From a virus: 64,000 nt of DNA. Of the stretch, positions 1 to 12,807 are shown piece by piece. The stretch lies in IMG/VR virus record IMGVR_UViG_3300037297_000135, positions 1-64,000 of that record; one strand, given 5' to 3'. The position numbers and the translations under genes were made by a program. Under the pieces are notes generated by a model. The model was given only the letters and a program-made list of their open reading frames with translations, did not search any database and was not told the origin of the DNA. The stretch's first letter is position 1. The number at the start of each line of letters is the position of its first letter.

Positions 1-1
1 A

Positions 2-706
2 TATACAATTAAAGATAAATATATTATTGAGCTTTATAATATAGAATATCTTGATGAAGATAAAGATAACAAAAACAATCCAGATAATTGTAAGAAAGAA
101 CCAGAACAACCTATTGACAAAAATGGTACTGACAAAAATGGTACTGATAAACCTATTGACAAAAATGGTCAATGCCAAAAGTGTCAAATAGCTTCAAACA
201 CTGATAAAAAGTGCAATAAAAAGCTATTGACAAAAATGGCACGTGATACTCATGATATATATAATAATAATATATATAATAATATATCATGTATCATGAA
301 AAATAAATCAAAATCGAAAAAGAAATTTATAAAAACACCACTTACAAAAAATGACAATGATTTTATTTGTGAAATTATAAAAACGTTTAAAGAAAAATAC
401 AATGCTGTATTGATAAAGGGTTGTATTGAAGCATTGTTTAGGAAAAAAGGTAAAAAAGCAAAAGAGCTGCTTTTGCATTATGTCAACAATTTTAAAAATC
501 ATTTGGAATCAGTGAGATATGTGATTTATGATATTGGAAGATTTTTCTATAGTACTGTGTTGAAAGAAATAGTAACACCAGTTCAATATGTACCACAACA
601 AAAGTCACAGGTTCAATATGTTCAAAAGCCTATTCAATCAACAAACTATGAGCAGCGAAAATATGATGATGAATTTTTTGAAGGTTTGTATACTAATGTT
701 GAATAG
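2..706 (+). CDS. Partial replication-initiator-like protein
   Basis: The reading frame is open from the first bases of the window, so the N-terminus lies outside; the internal ATG at 227 is not the real start. The visible 234 residues have an acidic/Asn-rich linker with repeated PIDKNG/TDKNG units, a short Cys pair (CQKC), a low-complexity Ile/Asn stretch, and a basic helical C-terminal domain ending in a Gln-rich tail. This layout (domain, variable linker, small C-terminal domain) is typical of phage replisome organisers/DnaD-like initiators, but I see no diagnostic motif. The linker DNA carries short direct repeats and an AT-rich inverted repeat, as expected when an initiator gene contains its own origin. 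Function is an inference from this arrangement and from the early-gene context. Confidence 0.45.
   Translation, partial: YTIKDKYIIELYNIEYLDEDKDNKNNPDNCKKEPEQPIDKNGTDKNGTDKPIDKNGQCQKCQIASNTDKKCNKKLLTKMARDTHDIYNNNIYNNISCIMKNKSKSKKKFIKTPLTKNDNDFICEIIKTFKEKYNAVLIKGCIEALFRKKGKKAKELLLHYVNNFKNHLESVRYVIYDIGRFFYSTVLKEIVTPVQYVPQQKSQVQYVQKPIQSTNYEQRKYDDEFFEGLYTNVE
111..240 (+). repeat. Short direct repeats (iteron-like) inside initiator gene
   Basis: Copies of ctattgacaaaaatgg occur at 111, 153 and 224, with a shorter tgacaaaaatggtac copy at 130. The first three copies are read in one codon phase (PIDKNG/TDKNG) but the copy at 224 is read in another phase (LLTKM). The conserved thing is therefore the DNA, not the peptide, which fits protein-binding iterons. 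Confidence 0.55.
244..296. repeat. AT-only region bounded by inverted repeat (possible unwinding element)
   Basis: Arms at 244-260 and 282-296 pair over 10 bp (catgatatat with atatatcatg) and, after a 2-nt bulge at 249-250, over 5 more (tgata with tatca). The 21-nt loop is pure A/T. It lies immediately 3' of the direct repeats, where a DNA-unwinding element would be expected. Origin function is inferred. Confidence 0.45.
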
Positions 707-4661: not shown

Positions 4662-6254
4662 ATGCCAATTTATATACCAATAATTGGTGGAGTAATAAGT
4701 GGTTTAGGTAAAGGTGCGTTAGCTGCTTCGCTTGGTCAACTTATAAAAAATAAAATGAATTTAAGTGTTGGTATAATAAAGATAGACCCATATTTAAATA
4801 TTGATTGTGGAACTATGAATCCAGACCAACATGGTGAAGTTTTTGTAACTGAAGATGGTAAAGAAACTGATTTGGATTTGGGGCATTATGAAAGATTTTT
4901 AGACGAAAATCTTTTAAAAGACTCATGTATGACAATGGGTCAAATAACAAATGAAGTGCTTTTGGCTGAAAGAAATGGTGAATTTTTAGGGAAAGATATT
5001 CAAATAGTACCTAATATAACCGATAAAATAATTGAAAAAATAAATAAAATAGGGATTGAAAAAGATGTAGTAATAATTGAAGTTGGTGGAACAGTAGGTG
5101 ATTATGAAGCAGATTCAATTTTGTATGCAATAAAAAAACTTATGATTAAAAATAAATGTGTGTGTTTGTTTTTATCGAAATTAGATTGTGAAAGTGGTTC
5201 AATAAAAACTAAACCAATTCAAAATTCAGTCAAAACAATTGGTAGTTATGGGATTGAACCAGATATATTAATTGTAAGAGCATATAAAAATTTGACTGAT
5301 AATGATAAACAACACATAAAAGATAAATTAGAAGACTATGTAAAATATATATTATTTGGTGAAACAATTTCAAATATTTATGATTTGCCAAAATATTTTG
5401 AAAGTCAAGGTTTGTTAAGAATCTTGTCTTTGAAGATAGGAATAAGTTATGATGAAAAAAAAGTTGAATATAAAAAGTGGAATCCAATAGGATTAGATAT
5501 ATATAAAATTGCAATAGCAGAAAAATATCATGGAACCGACACATATATTTCAGTACAAGAAGCTATAAAACATATTGCTATAAATCAAAATATAAATATA
5601 GAGGTAGAGTTTGTTGATATAGAGTCTCAATTCACCATTGAACAATGGAAGATGTTTAATGGTGTAATAATACCAGGAGCATTTGGAGACAGATGCATGG
5701 AGAATAAGATAACATTATGTAATTATTTAAGAGAAAATAATGTACCAACATTAGGTTTATGTATGGGTATGCAAATTATGTGTATTGAGTTTGCAAGAAA
5801 TGTTTGTGATATTAAAAATGCAACATCTCAAGAATTTAAAAACGAAATGATAACAAATCCTGAATATATTGTTCATTTAATGAATGACCAACAATATGTT
5901 AAACAAGTTGGTGGTTCAATGAGATTAGGAAGTTATCCATGTAATTTGATGTGTGATTCGATTGCATATGAATGTTATAAAACAATATCAATTAATGAAA
6001 GACATAGACATAGATATGAATTCAATAATGAATATAGAAAGATTTTAAGTGAAAAAGGAATGAAGTTCACTGGTTTTAATCAAAAGTTAGATTTGATTGA
6101 AATAATTGAATTGGATAAAGAAACACATCCATTTTTTGTTGGAGTACAATTTCATTCAGAATTTAAATCAAGACCAAATAGACCACATCCATTGTTTTTA
6201 GGATTTTTTGATACAATAAAAAAAATCAGAATGGAGAATATAGAAGATGAATAA
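4662..6254 (+). CDS. pyrG: CTP synthase (glutamine-hydrolysing)
   Basis: 530 residues, full family length. It converts UTP to CTP using ATP and glutamine ammonia. The N-terminal synthetase domain has the P-loop-like GGVISGLGKGALAASLG and the conserved NIDCGTMNPDQHGEVFVTEDG region. The C-terminal class I glutaminase domain has PGAFGDR, the nucleophile in GLCMGMQ (Cys367) and the His-Glu pair in FHSEF (His498, Glu500), so the catalytic triad is intact. The usual HPE appears here as HSE. Overlaps the next gene by 8 bases. Phage-borne CTP synthase probably boosts or redirects pyrimidine pools during replication. Confidence 0.95.
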   Translation: MPIYIPIIGGVISGLGKGALAASLGQLIKNKMNLSVGIIKIDPYLNIDCGTMNPDQHGEVFVTEDGKETDLDLGHYERFLDENLLKDSCMTMGQITNEVLLAERNGEFLGKDIQIVPNITDKIIEKINKIGIEKDVVIIEVGGTVGDYEADSILYAIKKLMIKNKCVCLFLSKLDCESGSIKTKPIQNSVKTIGSYGIEPDILIVRAYKNLTDNDKQHIKDKLEDYVKYILFGETISNIYDLPKYFESQGLLRILSLKIGISYDEKKVEYKKWNPIGLDIYKIAIAEKYHGTDTYISVQEAIKHIAINQNINIEVEFVDIESQFTIEQWKMFNGVIIPGAFGDRCMENKITLCNYLRENNVPTLGLCMGMQIMCIEFARNVCDIKNATSQEFKNEMITNPEYIVHLMNDQQYVKQVGGSMRLGSYPCNLMCDSIAYECYKTISINERHRHRYEFNNEYRKILSEKGMKFTGFNQKLDLIEIIELDKETHPFFVGVQFHSEFKSRPNRPHPLFLGFFDTIKKIRMENIEDE

Positions 6255-6885: not shown

Positions 6886-6912
6886 AAAATAAAAATTTAA
6901 AGGAGAATGAAT

Positions 6913-7632
6913 ATGTTTAGTTTAGAAAAAGCAAGAGAAGAAGTAAAACAAAGTTTTACTGTAAGCTTAGAAAAGAAATATCAAGAAACAAATATTGCAC
7001 ATGATATAGAAGCTGAAGTTAAATTTGCTTGTGATATATCAGGAAGTATGAATAGAAGAGATATGAGTGGGAAATTATATGATGATGGAACAGTAAATGA
7101 GATTGTAAAAAGATTTTTTGCGATAGCAAAAGAGCTTGACGACAACGGAGAGATGGAAATGTATCCGTTTTCAGTGTATTGTGAAGAATTAAAGGTGCAT
7201 GTGAAAGATGATAACTATGAAAATTATGTTAAAAAAGAAATAATGGGTTTTAATAAAAAGAAAGATTGGTATTTTGGTGGTACAAATTATGTGGCAATGA
7301 TAAAAGAAATATTAAAACATTGTAATAAAAAACCTCAATTGATATTATGTGTTGTAGATGGATGTACAACAAATAAAAAGCAAGCTAAAGAATTAATTAT
7401 ACAATCAGCAGAAAAACCGATTTTTTGGTTTTTTATAGGAATTGGAAACAATGAAAGGTTTGAATTTTTAGAAAGTTTAGATGATATGGATGAAAGCAAA
7501 AGAAAAATAGATAATGTAGATTTTAAACAGATTAAAGATATAACAAAAATAAGCAATAAAGAATTGTATGATATGATTTCAGATGAATTTGTTGGATGGT
7601 TTTATAAAGCTAAGGAGTTAAATATTTTTTAA
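6913..7632 (+). CDS. von Willebrand A domain protein (TerF/TerY-like)
   Basis: ATG 6913 is chosen because AAAGGAG (6899-6905) is too close to the ATG at 6907. The vWA fold covers nearly the whole 239 residues: MIDAS motif DISGS (Asp41, Ser43, Ser45), a Thr in FGGTNYV and an Asp in CVVDGCTT complete the metal site. Resembles the cytoplasmic TerF/TerY-type vWA proteins found in phages and stress operons. Sits directly behind the nucleic-acid kinase. Partner and role unknown. Confidence 0.75.
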   Translation: MFSLEKAREEVKQSFTVSLEKKYQETNIAHDIEAEVKFACDISGSMNRRDMSGKLYDDGTVNEIVKRFFAIAKELDDNGEMEMYPFSVYCEELKVHVKDDNYENYVKKEIMGFNKKKDWYFGGTNYVAMIKEILKHCNKKPQLILCVVDGCTTNKKQAKELIIQSAEKPIFWFFIGIGNNERFEFLESLDDMDESKRKIDNVDFKQIKDITKISNKELYDMISDEFVGWFYKAKELNIF

Positions 7633-8033: not shown

Positions 8034-8049
8034 AAAGGATGTGTTTTAT

Positions 8050-8544
8050 ATGTTAAAATCATATAATGAAATTATAAAAGAAATAAAATGTAGTGATTTA
8101 AGTAATGATACAAAAAATATGTTGGAAAAAATTTCATATGACAAATTTAATAAAACAACAATTTTTGAAAAATATACAACTAATGATGAAATAATCAAAC
8201 AAACAAAAGAGTTGGGTGAAAGAATAGGGCTAATAAAAAATGGTGCTGTTAATGATGAATTTTTAATAAACAATGGTAAAATTTCAGCTTTTAATGTATC
8301 AGAAGTAAAAAAAATAGTAAATAAATTATATAATGATAAAAATGCATTGAGCGAAAGAGAAAAAAAATTTGTTAAATTAATCGAAAATTTAAATCTAATA
8401 AATTCCAAAAAAGAGTTTTTATATAGTAAAGAATTGGTAAAAATGATTACCACTGAAATGATTAAATTTTACAAAATTTACAATTACAAAAATAAAAGTT
8501 TTTTGATTGAAAATCCTCAAAAGCAAGTAGTATCAATGCGTTGA
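8050..8544 (+). CDS. Hypothetical protein, 164 aa
   Basis: ATG 8050 fits AAAAAGGA (8033-8039) better than the GTG at 8041. The protein is helical and charged, without a recognised domain. It is the last gene before the iteron origin region. Function not recognised. Confidence 0.55.
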   Translation: MLKSYNEIIKEIKCSDLSNDTKNMLEKISYDKFNKTTIFEKYTTNDEIIKQTKELGERIGLIKNGAVNDEFLINNGKISAFNVSEVKKIVNKLYNDKNALSEREKKFVKLIENLNLINSKKEFLYSKELVKMITTEMIKFYKIYNYKNKSFLIENPQKQVVSMR

Positions 8545-8602
8545 AGATTTTGTTTTAGTGGTTTGAAAATGATTGTTTTTACAAAATTTAACTCCTTTAT
8601 AG

Positions 8603-8619
8603 CCCAGTGATAAACTGGG
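8603..8619 (+). repeat. Small perfect hairpin upstream of iterons
   Basis: CCCAG and CTGGG arms separated by 7 bases (tgataaa). No T-run follows, so it is unlikely to be a terminator; it may be a structural part of the origin. Confidence 0.4.
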
Positions 8620-8631
8620 TTGTAGAGGGCA

Positions 8632-8710
8632 TACATAATAGACAAGTAATAGTACATAATAGACAAGTAATAGTACATAAGAGACAAGGGATAGTACATA
8701 ATAGACAAGT
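8632..8710 (+). repeat. Tandem 21-bp iterons
   Basis: Units start at 8632, 8653, 8674 and 8695 (last one 16 bp). The unit is tacataatagacaagtaatag; units 1 and 2 are identical and unit 3 differs at two positions. A spacing of 21 bp (two helical turns) is typical of RepA/Rep_3 initiator binding sites. The iterons abut a Rep_3 gene. Apparent minus-strand reading frames here are by-products of the repeats. Confidence 0.8.
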
Positions 8711-8767
8711 TTTTCGACCTCTGAACACGTTGATATGACAGGCGTTGAAGTATGCCTATAACTATAT

Positions 8768-8787
8768 ATAACTATTATAATAGTTAT
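8768..8787. promoter_or_regulatory. 20-bp perfect palindrome, possible rep operator
   Basis: The sequence from 8768 (ataactatta followed by its exact complement) is a perfect palindrome 49 bp before the rep start. Rep_3-family proteins commonly bind an inverted repeat as dimers to repress their own gene; that role is inferred here. Confidence 0.5.
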
Positions 8788-8835
8788 AATAAGACGTAAA
8801 AAAATAAAAAAATAAAAAAAAATAAGGATATAAAA

Positions 8836-9696
8836 ATGTATAACAATCTTGATTTTTTTGCAAAAGTAAAAATACATTATTTGGAAAACTTTCCTGATGT
8901 TTTTCAATTGAATTTTAGAAGATTAAAATTATTATGTAATATATATGGATTTTTAAATAATAAGTCAAAGCAATTAAAAATTAATGAATATATATTTAGA
9001 AGTGTTGACATAGTAGAGTATTTTGGTTATAGTAACAATTATAAAATTTTAAAAGAAGATTTAAATATTTTATCAAGATTAAAAGTAAATAATAAAATAA
9101 TATTTAAACATATCATATTTCGTCCAAAATTAGGTCTAATTTCTTTTGGAATAAATTCTAAGTATAAAAATACCTTTTCAAGATTAAAGTCTAATTTCAT
9201 CATTTTTGAGCTTAAAAACATAATAAGGCTAAAATATGATTTTTCTATTATTTTATATTGTTTATTAAAACAATATGAACCAATAAAGTATAGAATTATA
9301 TATTTAGATGATTTATATAAGTTTGCTAATATTGATAAAGATACTAAAATTAGTAGATTTATAGAAAATAAATTAAAAATAAGAATTGAAGAAATTAATA
9401 AATATTCTGATATATACATAACATATCATACAATAAAAAGTAATAGATATATTATAGGTATATATTTTAATATATATAGAAATAAGTATAGAATTGAATT
9501 TGATGAACAATTAAAGCTTGTATACATGTATTTAAAAAAAAATTATAATATAAATACTAATTTGACAATATTAGAACATTTTATTAATGTTGATGGTTTT
9601 AATAAAGTATATAATAAAGCTATAACGTATAAAGTAAGTTCAAATAAAGATAATACAAAATTATTTTATCAACATTTACTAAAAGAACAATATTAA
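8836..9696 (+). CDS. Rep_3-family plasmid replication initiator
   Basis: 286 residues with AAGGAT before the ATG. The protein has two winged-helix halves. The second is the more recognisable: RIIYLDDLYKFANI, then SRFIENKLKIRIEEINKYSDIYITYHTIKSN, then GIYFNIYRN, which follows the Rep_3 pattern of 'leader helix, EIN-S-L-I-Y, I-x-F-x-I'. Such initiators bind iterons to start replication of plasmids and plasmid-prophages. The 21-bp iterons and palindrome directly upstream support the call. The 3' end overlaps the convergent membrane gene by 4 bases. Confidence 0.8.
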   Translation: MYNNLDFFAKVKIHYLENFPDVFQLNFRRLKLLCNIYGFLNNKSKQLKINEYIFRSVDIVEYFGYSNNYKILKEDLNILSRLKVNNKIIFKHIIFRPKLGLISFGINSKYKNTFSRLKSNFIIFELKNIIRLKYDFSIILYCLLKQYEPIKYRIIYLDDLYKFANIDKDTKISRFIENKLKIRIEEINKYSDIYITYHTIKSNRYIIGIYFNIYRNKYRIEFDEQLKLVYMYLKKNYNINTNLTILEHFINVDGFNKVYNKAITYKVSSNKDNTKLFYQHLLKEQY

Positions 9697-10605: not shown

Positions 10606-12807
10606 TTGATGTTAAAGATGATTGTTGTGCCTAATCGATTAGTTTTTAAGAGTAAAGAAAATGATTTCAAAATATATAAAGTTAATATAATAGATGAAAA
10701 CAGCAATATACTTTCAATTGATGAAACAATATTAGGTGAAGTATATGATTTAATTATAGATGTAGAATATATAATTGAAGCTGAAAAAGAAGTAAACAAT
10801 ATTTTTGGTACTCAATATAGGATTAAAAATGTTTATAAAGTTGATTATTCAAAGAAAGATGAAGAATTATTGTTTGCTAATTTATTTGGGAAAAGGTTAT
10901 TAAACAAGGTTATAAGGTTTATAGAATATCCTATAACTGATTTTTTAAAAAAAGATTTTGAATTTGATAAAATTGGAATTAGTGAAAAAAGTTATAAAGA
11001 TATGAAAATAAAAATAATAGCAAACAAAATATATATTGATTCGATTTGTAAGTTTAAAGAAATCAATATATCTTTTAAATTGGCTAAAAAGATAATAGAT
11101 AAATATGGGTATAATGCAGTTGAGAAGGTAAAAAAGAATCCATATATACTTTATAAAGATATAAATGGAATTGGTTTTATAAAAGCAGACCAAATAGCAA
11201 GAAATTTAGGGATAAAAGGAAATGATAAAAATAGAATAGATGCTGCTATTCATTATGTTTTAGAAGATAATTTAAATCAAAGTAATACATGGATTTATAT
11301 AGATTATTTATATAATGAATTAGAAAAACTGCTTGAAATCACAATTGATGATTTAGACAATTATATTTACAAAAATGAATTTTATTTAAATGGAGATAAA
11401 ATATCATTACGAAAGATTGTTTTAATAGAAAAAGGAATTATAGATAATTTAAATAAAATAAAAAATTCTTTTTGTAGAAAGCTTTATAAAGATGAAGAAC
11501 TTGAATTTGGGATAAAAAACAATGTTGAATTTAAATATTCTGAAAAACAAATTGAATTTATAAAAAGTTTAAATACAAATAACTTGGTTTTATTATGTGG
11601 TTATGCTGGAACTGGTAAAACTGCATCTGTTAAAGCTGTTTTAGATATTTATTCAAGTGAATTTTATAATATAAAACTTTGTAGTCCAACTGCAAAAGCA
11701 GCAAAAGTTTTATCTGAATCAACAGGTAAAAAAGCTTTAACAATTCATAGATTGTTAGGGTGTAAGGGTAAAGGTAAATTTTTTTATAACAGAACTAATA
11801 AATTGCCATGTGATTTATTGATTATAGATGAAGCATCTATGATAGATATATATATGTTTAATCATATATTAAATGCTGTTGATAATGATTGTAGAGTTAT
11901 TATTATAGGAGATATTGCGCAATTAGAGAGTGTTCAATGTGGTAATGTATTCTATGATTTAATAAAATCAAGAGAATACAATATGGTGATATATAAAGAA
12001 GTATATAGGCAAGCAAAAGAATCAGGTATATTAACTATTGCTAATGAAGTTCGTAAAGGTAATAGTTATTATTTCAAAGAGCTTTTAAAAACAAAAAATC
12101 ATTTTGAAACAAATGAAGAAGGAAATGTAATTGGTTTTATAAATATAAAAGATAATTTCAATTTATTTTTGAATGATAAACAAAATATGATGAATAAATT
12201 ATTAGGGAATTATAAACAAAGTATTGAAAAATATGGTGTTGAAAATGTTTTAGTGATATCACCGTATAAAAAAGGTGATTTAGGAGTAAGAAATATAAAT
12301 GAAAGTATAAAAAAAATAGTAAATAATAAAGATGGTATTGAAATTAAAGGAGTTCTTTTTTCAATTGGCGATAAAGTAAAACATATAAAAAATGACTATG
12401 AAAGAGAACAATACGATAAAAAAAATTATGATATAACATTGAATGAATATGGTGTTTTCAATGGTGATTTTGGTATAATAGTTGATATTCAAGATGAAAT
12501 AATATTTGTAGATTATGAAGATAAAATCATAAAATATGAATACCCATACAATGATTTAGAATTGGCATATGCTATAACATGTCATAGTTCACAGGGTTCA
12601 CAAGCTGATTTAGTTATTGGGATTATGGATATTTCGCATTATATTAATTTAAAAAGAAATTTGTTATATACAATGATAACAAGAGCTAAAAAGAATTTTA
12701 TATTGATTGTGAATTCAAAAGCATTGTTTATTGCAATTAATAATAATACAAGCATAAAAAAACAAACTTATATAAACGATATAATAAATAATAAATTAAT
12801 AATATGA
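10606..12807 (+). CDS. RecD2-like SF1B DNA helicase
   Basis: 733 residues from TTG 10606 (ATG 10609 is an alternative; AAGGGAG at 10592-10598 serves either). The N-terminal region includes helix-hairpin-helix-like turns (NPYILYKDINGIGFIKAD). Then come motif I GYAGTGKT (Lys338), motif II LLIIDEASMID, the Q-containing DIAQLESV, and the C-terminal 2B/UvrD_C motifs ITCHSSQGSQADLVI and LLYTMITRAKKNFIL. These define RecD2-type 5'-3' helicases, which act in phage replication and recombination. Slightly short for RecD2 but all motifs are intact. Confidence 0.9.
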   Translation: MMLKMIVVPNRLVFKSKENDFKIYKVNIIDENSNILSIDETILGEVYDLIIDVEYIIEAEKEVNNIFGTQYRIKNVYKVDYSKKDEELLFANLFGKRLLNKVIRFIEYPITDFLKKDFEFDKIGISEKSYKDMKIKIIANKIYIDSICKFKEINISFKLAKKIIDKYGYNAVEKVKKNPYILYKDINGIGFIKADQIARNLGIKGNDKNRIDAAIHYVLEDNLNQSNTWIYIDYLYNELEKLLEITIDDLDNYIYKNEFYLNGDKISLRKIVLIEKGIIDNLNKIKNSFCRKLYKDEELEFGIKNNVEFKYSEKQIEFIKSLNTNNLVLLCGYAGTGKTASVKAVLDIYSSEFYNIKLCSPTAKAAKVLSESTGKKALTIHRLLGCKGKGKFFYNRTNKLPCDLLIIDEASMIDIYMFNHILNAVDNDCRVIIIGDIAQLESVQCGNVFYDLIKSREYNMVIYKEVYRQAKESGILTIANEVRKGNSYYFKELLKTKNHFETNEEGNVIGFINIKDNFNLFLNDKQNMMNKLLGNYKQSIEKYGVENVLVISPYKKGDLGVRNINESIKKIVNNKDGIEIKGVLFSIGDKVKHIKNDYEREQYDKKNYDITLNEYGVFNGDFGIIVDIQDEIIFVDYEDKIIKYEYPYNDLELAYAITCHSSQGSQADLVIGIMDISHYINLKRNLLYTMITRAKKNFILIVNSKALFIAINNNTSIKKQTYINDIINNKLII

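What the first reader, a model, noticed from the sequence alone, without database searches (positions are those of the whole stretch)
8545..9696. Iteron origin plus Rep_3 initiator in a phage genome: probable phage-plasmid
Three exact-spaced 21-bp iterons plus a partial fourth, a 20-bp palindrome, an AT tract and a Rep_3-type initiator follow in the order of a plasmid origin. No integrase is seen in this window. The phage may persist as a plasmid, like the C. botulinum c-st prophage.
Basis: partly seen in the sequence, partly recalled or inferred. Interest (0 to 1): 0.75.

Follow-up and report, generated by a model that had tools for sequence, protein, structure and literature searches.

The report
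Plasmid-type origin in large phage
A 130-kb virus of bacteria carries a plasmid-style replication start site and its matching starter protein, so it probably survives inside its host as a free circular plasmid; such phage-plasmids are already known, and this looks like one more of them.

Summary
Window 8632-8710 holds four 21-bp iterons (two exact, one with three changes, one 16-bp partial). They are followed by a 22-bp perfect palindrome, an AT-rich tract and a 286-aa ORF (8836-9696) that passes both Pfam Rep_3 domains and folds like RepE/Pi bound to iteron DNA (Z 16.9 and 14.9). Divergent plasmid relatives carry 21-22 bp iteron arrays at the same place. The window is the first half of a 130.3-kb virus record whose ends overlap, so the genome maps as a circle. 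I also found cI-like regulators and a phage replisome. No ParA, ParM or TubZ motor was found. Best reading: a phage-plasmid with two replication systems (plasmid-type plus lytic), like P1 in plan. The comparison with c-st is loose, because TubZ is missing. The lifestyle is inferred: no copy-number or lysogen data exist. New member of a known kind.

The parts
8632..8710 (+). Iteron array: 21-bp direct repeats, 3 full copies (8632-8652, 8653-8673, 8674-8694) plus a 16-bp partial copy (8695-8710)
   Evidence: unique in the 130-kb genome
8767..8788 (.). 22-bp perfect palindrome TATAACTATTATAATAGTTATA between iterons and rep; possible rep promoter/operator (inferred)
   Evidence: presence of such palindromes alone is near chance in this AT-rich genome
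8789..8835 (+). AT-rich tract (90-93% A+T), candidate DNA unwinding element and rep leader
   Evidence: composition; function inferred
8836..9696 (+). rep: Rep_3 (WH1+WH2) replication initiator, 286 aa
   Evidence: Pfam PF01051 and PF21205 above cut-off; NCBIfam RepM/RepE weak; AlphaFold model matches RepE-iteron complex Z 16.9 and Pi Z 14.9
8041..8544 (+). 167-aa ORF directly upstream of the origin, no recognised family
10606..12807 (+). RecD2-type helicase directly downstream of the rep region; shared with Geobacillus virus E3
1..706 (+). 3' part of an O-like replication initiator gene that runs across the contig ends (its start is near position 130054 of the 130483-base record); contains in-frame ATTGACAAAAATGG-type repeats at 116, 131, 158 and 229 = candidate lytic origin
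   Evidence: PHROG 11233 E=4e-7 and 678 E=0.003; end overlap and 42-bp in-frame repeat difference

Best explanation
The locus is a plasmid-type theta origin with its own Rep_3 initiator, carried by a large circular-mapping tailed-phage genome, and it serves to keep the prophage as a low-copy circular plasmid. Rep monomers bind the iterons at 8632-8710 (fold and repeats shown; binding inferred). The neighbouring AT-rich tract at about 8789-8835 is opened and a helicase is loaded (inferred from RepE/Pi biology). Iteron pairing and Rep acting on its own promoter near the 22-bp palindrome limit copy number (inferred). The single tyrosine recombinase (87935-88801) resolves dimers (inferred from its relatives). 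In lytic growth the phage would switch to its own O-like initiator, whose gene spans the record's ends and holds internal repeats, and to its own DnaB, primase and DnaE (genes shown, switch inferred). Segregation would rest on copy number or on an unrecognised system, perhaps the ParB-like gene at 89854-90726.
For: Rep_3 domains over cut-off. Profile of relatives matches RepE, Pi and RepA of pPS10 in the PDB at 1e-33 to 1e-22. AlphaFold model pLDDT 78.5 matches RepE54-iteron DNA at Z 16.9, rmsd 3.6, 204 residues, and Pi at Z 14.9. Iterons above chance. Five of five plasmid rep relatives checked (Niallia, Priestia, Geobacillus, Peribacillus, Acinetobacter) have 21-22 bp tandem iterons just upstream of rep. 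Circular-mapping ends. One tyrosine recombinase, no large serine recombinase; best relatives are tyrosine recombinases of 19-kb Bacillus and Parageobacillus plasmids, E to 4e-17, against 1e-8 at best among phages. Relatives of that recombinase lie near rep_3 on Orenia and Bacillus contigs, and a tyrosine recombinase follows rep on a Priestia plasmid. Second, O-like initiator. cI-like repressors. Rep, O-like initiator, recombinase and ParB-like gene are absent from the nearest phage found, Geobacillus E3, while packaging and replisome genes are shared.
Against: No ParA, TubZ, actin-like (ALP_N) or PF02195 ParB match; the StbA/ParM search had no ringing control. The recombinase could be an integrase. 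Circular contigs also arise from terminally redundant linear phage DNA (PMC8026635). Rep is very divergent (branch 6.1) and lacks two near-invariant family residues (R139 is I, E142 is C). No DnaA box in the origin. No lysogen, copy-number or host data.
Confidence: 0.72

Rival explanations
1. The Rep_3/iteron module is (also or only) an origin for lytic DNA synthesis, not for a plasmid prophage.
For: The phage codes for its own DnaB-like helicase, primase, RecJ and DnaE polymerase, shared with Geobacillus virus E3; rep lies next to the recD2 gene that is part of that shared set.
Against: A separate O-like initiator with its own in-gene repeats is present, and E3 has the same replisome without any Rep_3. 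Known Rep_3 relatives are overwhelmingly on plasmids.
Confidence: 0.13
2. An ordinary integrating temperate phage: the tyrosine recombinase is the integrase and the Rep_3 module is an accessory acquired from a plasmid.
For: Catalytically complete tyrosine recombinase (R, HxxR, H, Y present by eye) with PHROG 'integrase' models as best hits; no partition motor.
Against: Closest relatives are plasmid and Xer-type enzymes. No tRNA lies next to it (nearest about 5.4 kb away). A dif-like site was not found above chance, which does not decide between the two.
Confidence: 0.12
3. The rep gene is a decaying or non-functional relic.
For: Long branch and loss of two near-invariant residues.
Against: Intact 286-aa frame with both winged-helix domains, well-preserved iterons of regular spacing, and a confident RepE-like model.
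Confidence: 0.03

Closest known systems
Plasmid Rep_3 iteron origins (RepE of F, Pi of R6K, Bacillales plasmid replicons such as Priestia, Niallia, Geobacillus)
   Same: WH1+WH2 initiator, 21-bp tandem iterons upstream of rep, AT-rich stretch beside them
   Different: Only 3 full iterons plus a partial; no exact DnaA box; protein about 25% identical, shorter (286 aa) than most Gram-positive relatives; sits in a phage genome
Phage P1
   Same: In plan: iteron-binding initiator for the plasmid state, a separate lytic initiator, and a tyrosine recombinase; circular plasmid prophage (P1 details partly from general knowledge)
   Different: P1 has ParA/ParB partition and unrelated phage genes; no partition motor found here
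Clostridium phage c-st
   Same: Large siphophage-like genome, one Xer-type tyrosine recombinase, plasmid prophage (PMC8026635)
   Different: c-st partitions by TubZ/TubR; none found here
C. difficile big plasmidial siphophages phiCD5763, phiCD2955, phiCD211
   Same: About 130-kb circular genomes that stay extrachromosomal, with phage replisome and recombinase genes (PMC5786514); among distant TerL relatives are five Clostridioides records
   Different: They carry parM-like genes; no Rep_3 hit in the phage collection
Geobacillus virus E3
   Same: Closest structural relative found (major capsid 38% identity); shares HNH protein, terminase, DnaB, primase, RecJ, DnaE and RecD2
   Different: No Rep_3, no O-like initiator match, no match to this recombinase

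Membership tests
Rep_3 (PF01051/PF21205) initiator | WH1 and WH2 domains above curated cut-off | tested here: met
   43 bits against 22.4 and 27.8 against 21.1
Rep_3 (PF01051/PF21205) initiator | Fold of iteron-bound RepE/Pi | tested here: met
   Z 16.9 and 14.9; Foldseek E 7e-9 for RepE54 with iteron DNA
Iteron theta origin | Directly repeated, helically phased 19-22 bp iterons beside rep | tested here: met
   four copies at 21-bp spacing, 126 bp upstream of the rep start
Iteron theta origin | AT-rich unwinding region | tested here: met
   90-93% A+T at 8780-8839 against 76% in the whole genome
Iteron theta origin | DnaA box | tested here: not met
   no TTATNCACA in 8500-9000; not a universal feature
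Iteron theta origin | Autonomous replication of the fragment | not testable with these tools
   needs cloning
Phage-plasmid | Phage structural and packaging genes plus plasmid replication initiator in one genome | tested here: met
Phage-plasmid | Circular genome | tested here: met
   ends overlap by 183 nt apart from a 42-bp repeat-copy difference; terminally redundant linear DNA would look the same
Phage-plasmid | Partition system (ParA, ParM or TubZ) | tested here: inconclusive
   no family or motif match; only a ParB-like PHROG 12305 protein; the ParM search had no working control
Phage-plasmid | Extrachromosomal prophage in lysogens | not testable with these tools
   no host or reads at hand
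Xer/plasmid resolvase | Tyrosine recombinase closer to XerA/C/D and plasmid enzymes than to phage integrases | tested here: inconclusive
   NCBIfam Xer models best but below cut-offs; plasmid hits stronger than phage hits; PHROGs call it integrase

The most novel reading that the evidence does not exclude
A new lineage of about 130-kb E3/SPbeta-related phage-plasmids that runs a plasmid Rep_3 origin and a phage O-like origin side by side, and segregates without any known partition motor, perhaps by a ParB-like protein alone or with the unknown gene beside it.
Probability: 0.25. Interest if true: 0.5.

Novelty: new member of a known kind. Interest (0 to 1): 0.36.

Why it matters
It adds a deeply divergent Rep_3 replicon to a large tailed phage that is otherwise unlike known phages at the DNA level, and gives a clear two-origin layout in which plasmid-state and lytic replication could be separated genetically. 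The apparent lack of a partition motor is the point most worth testing.

Tried and rejected
Close relatives of Rep in IMG/VR and GTDB genomes with the single protein: none; only an alignment query found distant ones. Exact iteron search in IMG/VR: none. TerL and MCP scans gave only one contig of the same metagenome, identical in those genes. DNA-level relatives among phages: none for window 1-25000. Portal search in phages: none. Folding Rep without an alignment failed (pLDDT 36); with 59 sequences it worked. The Rep tree does not place the protein: its branch is very long. dif-like sites: not above chance. Consensus promoters near rep are not clearly more frequent than chance. The IMG/VR contig L022 is a TubZ plasmid by its genes, not a phage; L021 is a tailed phage with Rep_3 next to ParA and ParB genes, i.e. 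another Rep_3 phage-plasmid candidate.

Full report
What is there. The window is bases 1-64000 of a 130,483-base virus record. The iterons occur nowhere else in the genome, and only 0.01 such matches are expected by chance. The palindrome by itself is not remarkable for 24% GC DNA.

The initiator. The 286-aa protein passes the curated Pfam cut-offs for both Rep_3 domains, and PHROG 4402 'replication initiation protein' matches. It is only about 20-28% identical to its relatives over the full alignment. An alignment of P0001 with nine plasmid relatives finds RepE, Pi and pPS10 RepA in the PDB. With 59 sequences the predicted structure (pLDDT 78.5) matches RepE bound to iteron DNA at Z 16.9 and Pi at Z 14.9. 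Control for anatomy: all five plasmid relatives examined for repeats (L012, L013, L014, L015, L018) carry 21-22 bp tandem repeats directly upstream of rep. Two near-invariant residues of the family (R139, E142) are replaced by I and C, and the tree branch is very long, so function is likely but not certain.

The genome around it. The record's ends overlap: bases 130301-130483 repeat bases 1-225 apart from a 42-bp in-frame repeat difference. The genome therefore maps as a circle of about 130.3 kb, although terminally redundant linear DNA would look the same (PMC8026635). The gene across the join codes for an O-like replication initiator (PHROG 11233 E=4e-7; PHROG 678 E=0.003) with four ATTGACAAAAATGG-type repeats inside it and 43-bp repeats upstream at 129741-129910. 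This looks like the lytic origin. The phage also has DnaB-like helicase, primase, RecJ, DnaE and RecD2 genes; these and the packaging and capsid genes are shared with Geobacillus virus E3, whereas Rep_3, the O-like protein, the tyrosine recombinase and the ParB-like protein are not.

Integration, resolution and partition. The only integrase-family gene is a 288-aa tyrosine recombinase at 87935-88801, minus strand. It has the R / HxxR / H / Y residues (by eye), Xer models score best in NCBIfam though below cut-off, and its best relatives are on small Bacillus and Parageobacillus plasmids. Relatives lie near rep_3 genes on Orenia and Bacillus contigs, and a tyrosine recombinase follows rep on a Priestia plasmid. 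No large serine recombinase was found. Next to the recombinase lies a ParB-like protein (PHROG 12305; not PF02195). No ParA, TubZ or actin-like motor was found, but the StbA search lacked a working control. cI-like regulators at 117312, 119157 and 121512 fit a temperate phage.

Reading. Most likely this is a phage-plasmid with a plasmid-type origin for the lysogenic state and a phage-type origin for lytic growth, as in P1 by general plan. Experimentally known circular plasmid prophages usually carry Xer-type recombinases and a partition system (PMC8026635); the first is met here, the second is not shown. The C. difficile big plasmidial siphophages (about 130 kb, parM-like; PMC5786514) are the closest in size and lifestyle. 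Shown here: sequence anatomy, family membership, fold, circular mapping, gene inventory. Inferred: DNA binding, origin activity, dimer resolution, lifestyle. The host is not known; low GC and the relatives suggest Bacillota.

Verdict. Real, well-formed, and a new member of a known kind. Interest is moderate: large Rep_3 phage-plasmids are not surprising, but the two-initiator layout and the missing partition motor are testable points.

Noticed in passing
genome 122532-122634, minus strand (L004:18532-18634): Circularly permuted tRNA-like RNA that matches the bacterial Y RNA family YrlA (RF02553, 37.3 bits, E=5e-5, below the 69-bit gathering score); ends are AU-rich and the Ro-binding stem is poorly conserved. 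No TROVE/Ro60 gene was found in the genome.
   Followed up: partly
window 48940-50445: 501-aa protein with a vWA-like DASKS motif and no Pfam family above cut-off; considered as a Ro-like partner of the Y RNA, not supported by TROVE or PDB searches.
   Followed up: partly
genome 1-225 and 130301-130483: Tandem-repeat copy difference of 42 bp, in frame, between the two ends of the contig inside the O-like initiator gene: possible natural variation in the lytic origin repeats.
   Followed up: partly
genome 67567-67700: Intergenic array of 24-bp repeats (unit TTTGCTTTTTGATATAAAAAAGAG and variants) upstream of a 705-aa ORF without a Pfam hit; could be a regulatory or centromere-like site.
   Followed up: no
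genome 107456-110593: About 3 kb almost without ORFs of 70 aa or more, between two gene blocks; contents unexplained.
   Followed up: no
window 4662-6254; 6907-7632; genome 124777-125361: By reading the sequence, a CTP synthase-like protein and a TerD-like protein; a TerF-type vWA protein by Pfam.
   Followed up: no
genome 111944-112453 and 126114-126833: Two proteins share a winged-helix segment with weak RepL similarity (PF05732 E=0.003 for the first); the second is fused to a GIY-YIG nuclease domain.
   Followed up: no
genome 127387-127623: 78-aa orphan that reads like the N-terminal arm-binding domain of phage tyrosine integrases; no Pfam, PHROG or NCBIfam hit.
   Followed up: partly
L021 (IMGVR_UViG_2909979649_000009): 28-kb tailed-phage contig with Rep_3 beside ParA and ParB genes: another likely Rep_3 phage-plasmid.
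   Followed up: partly
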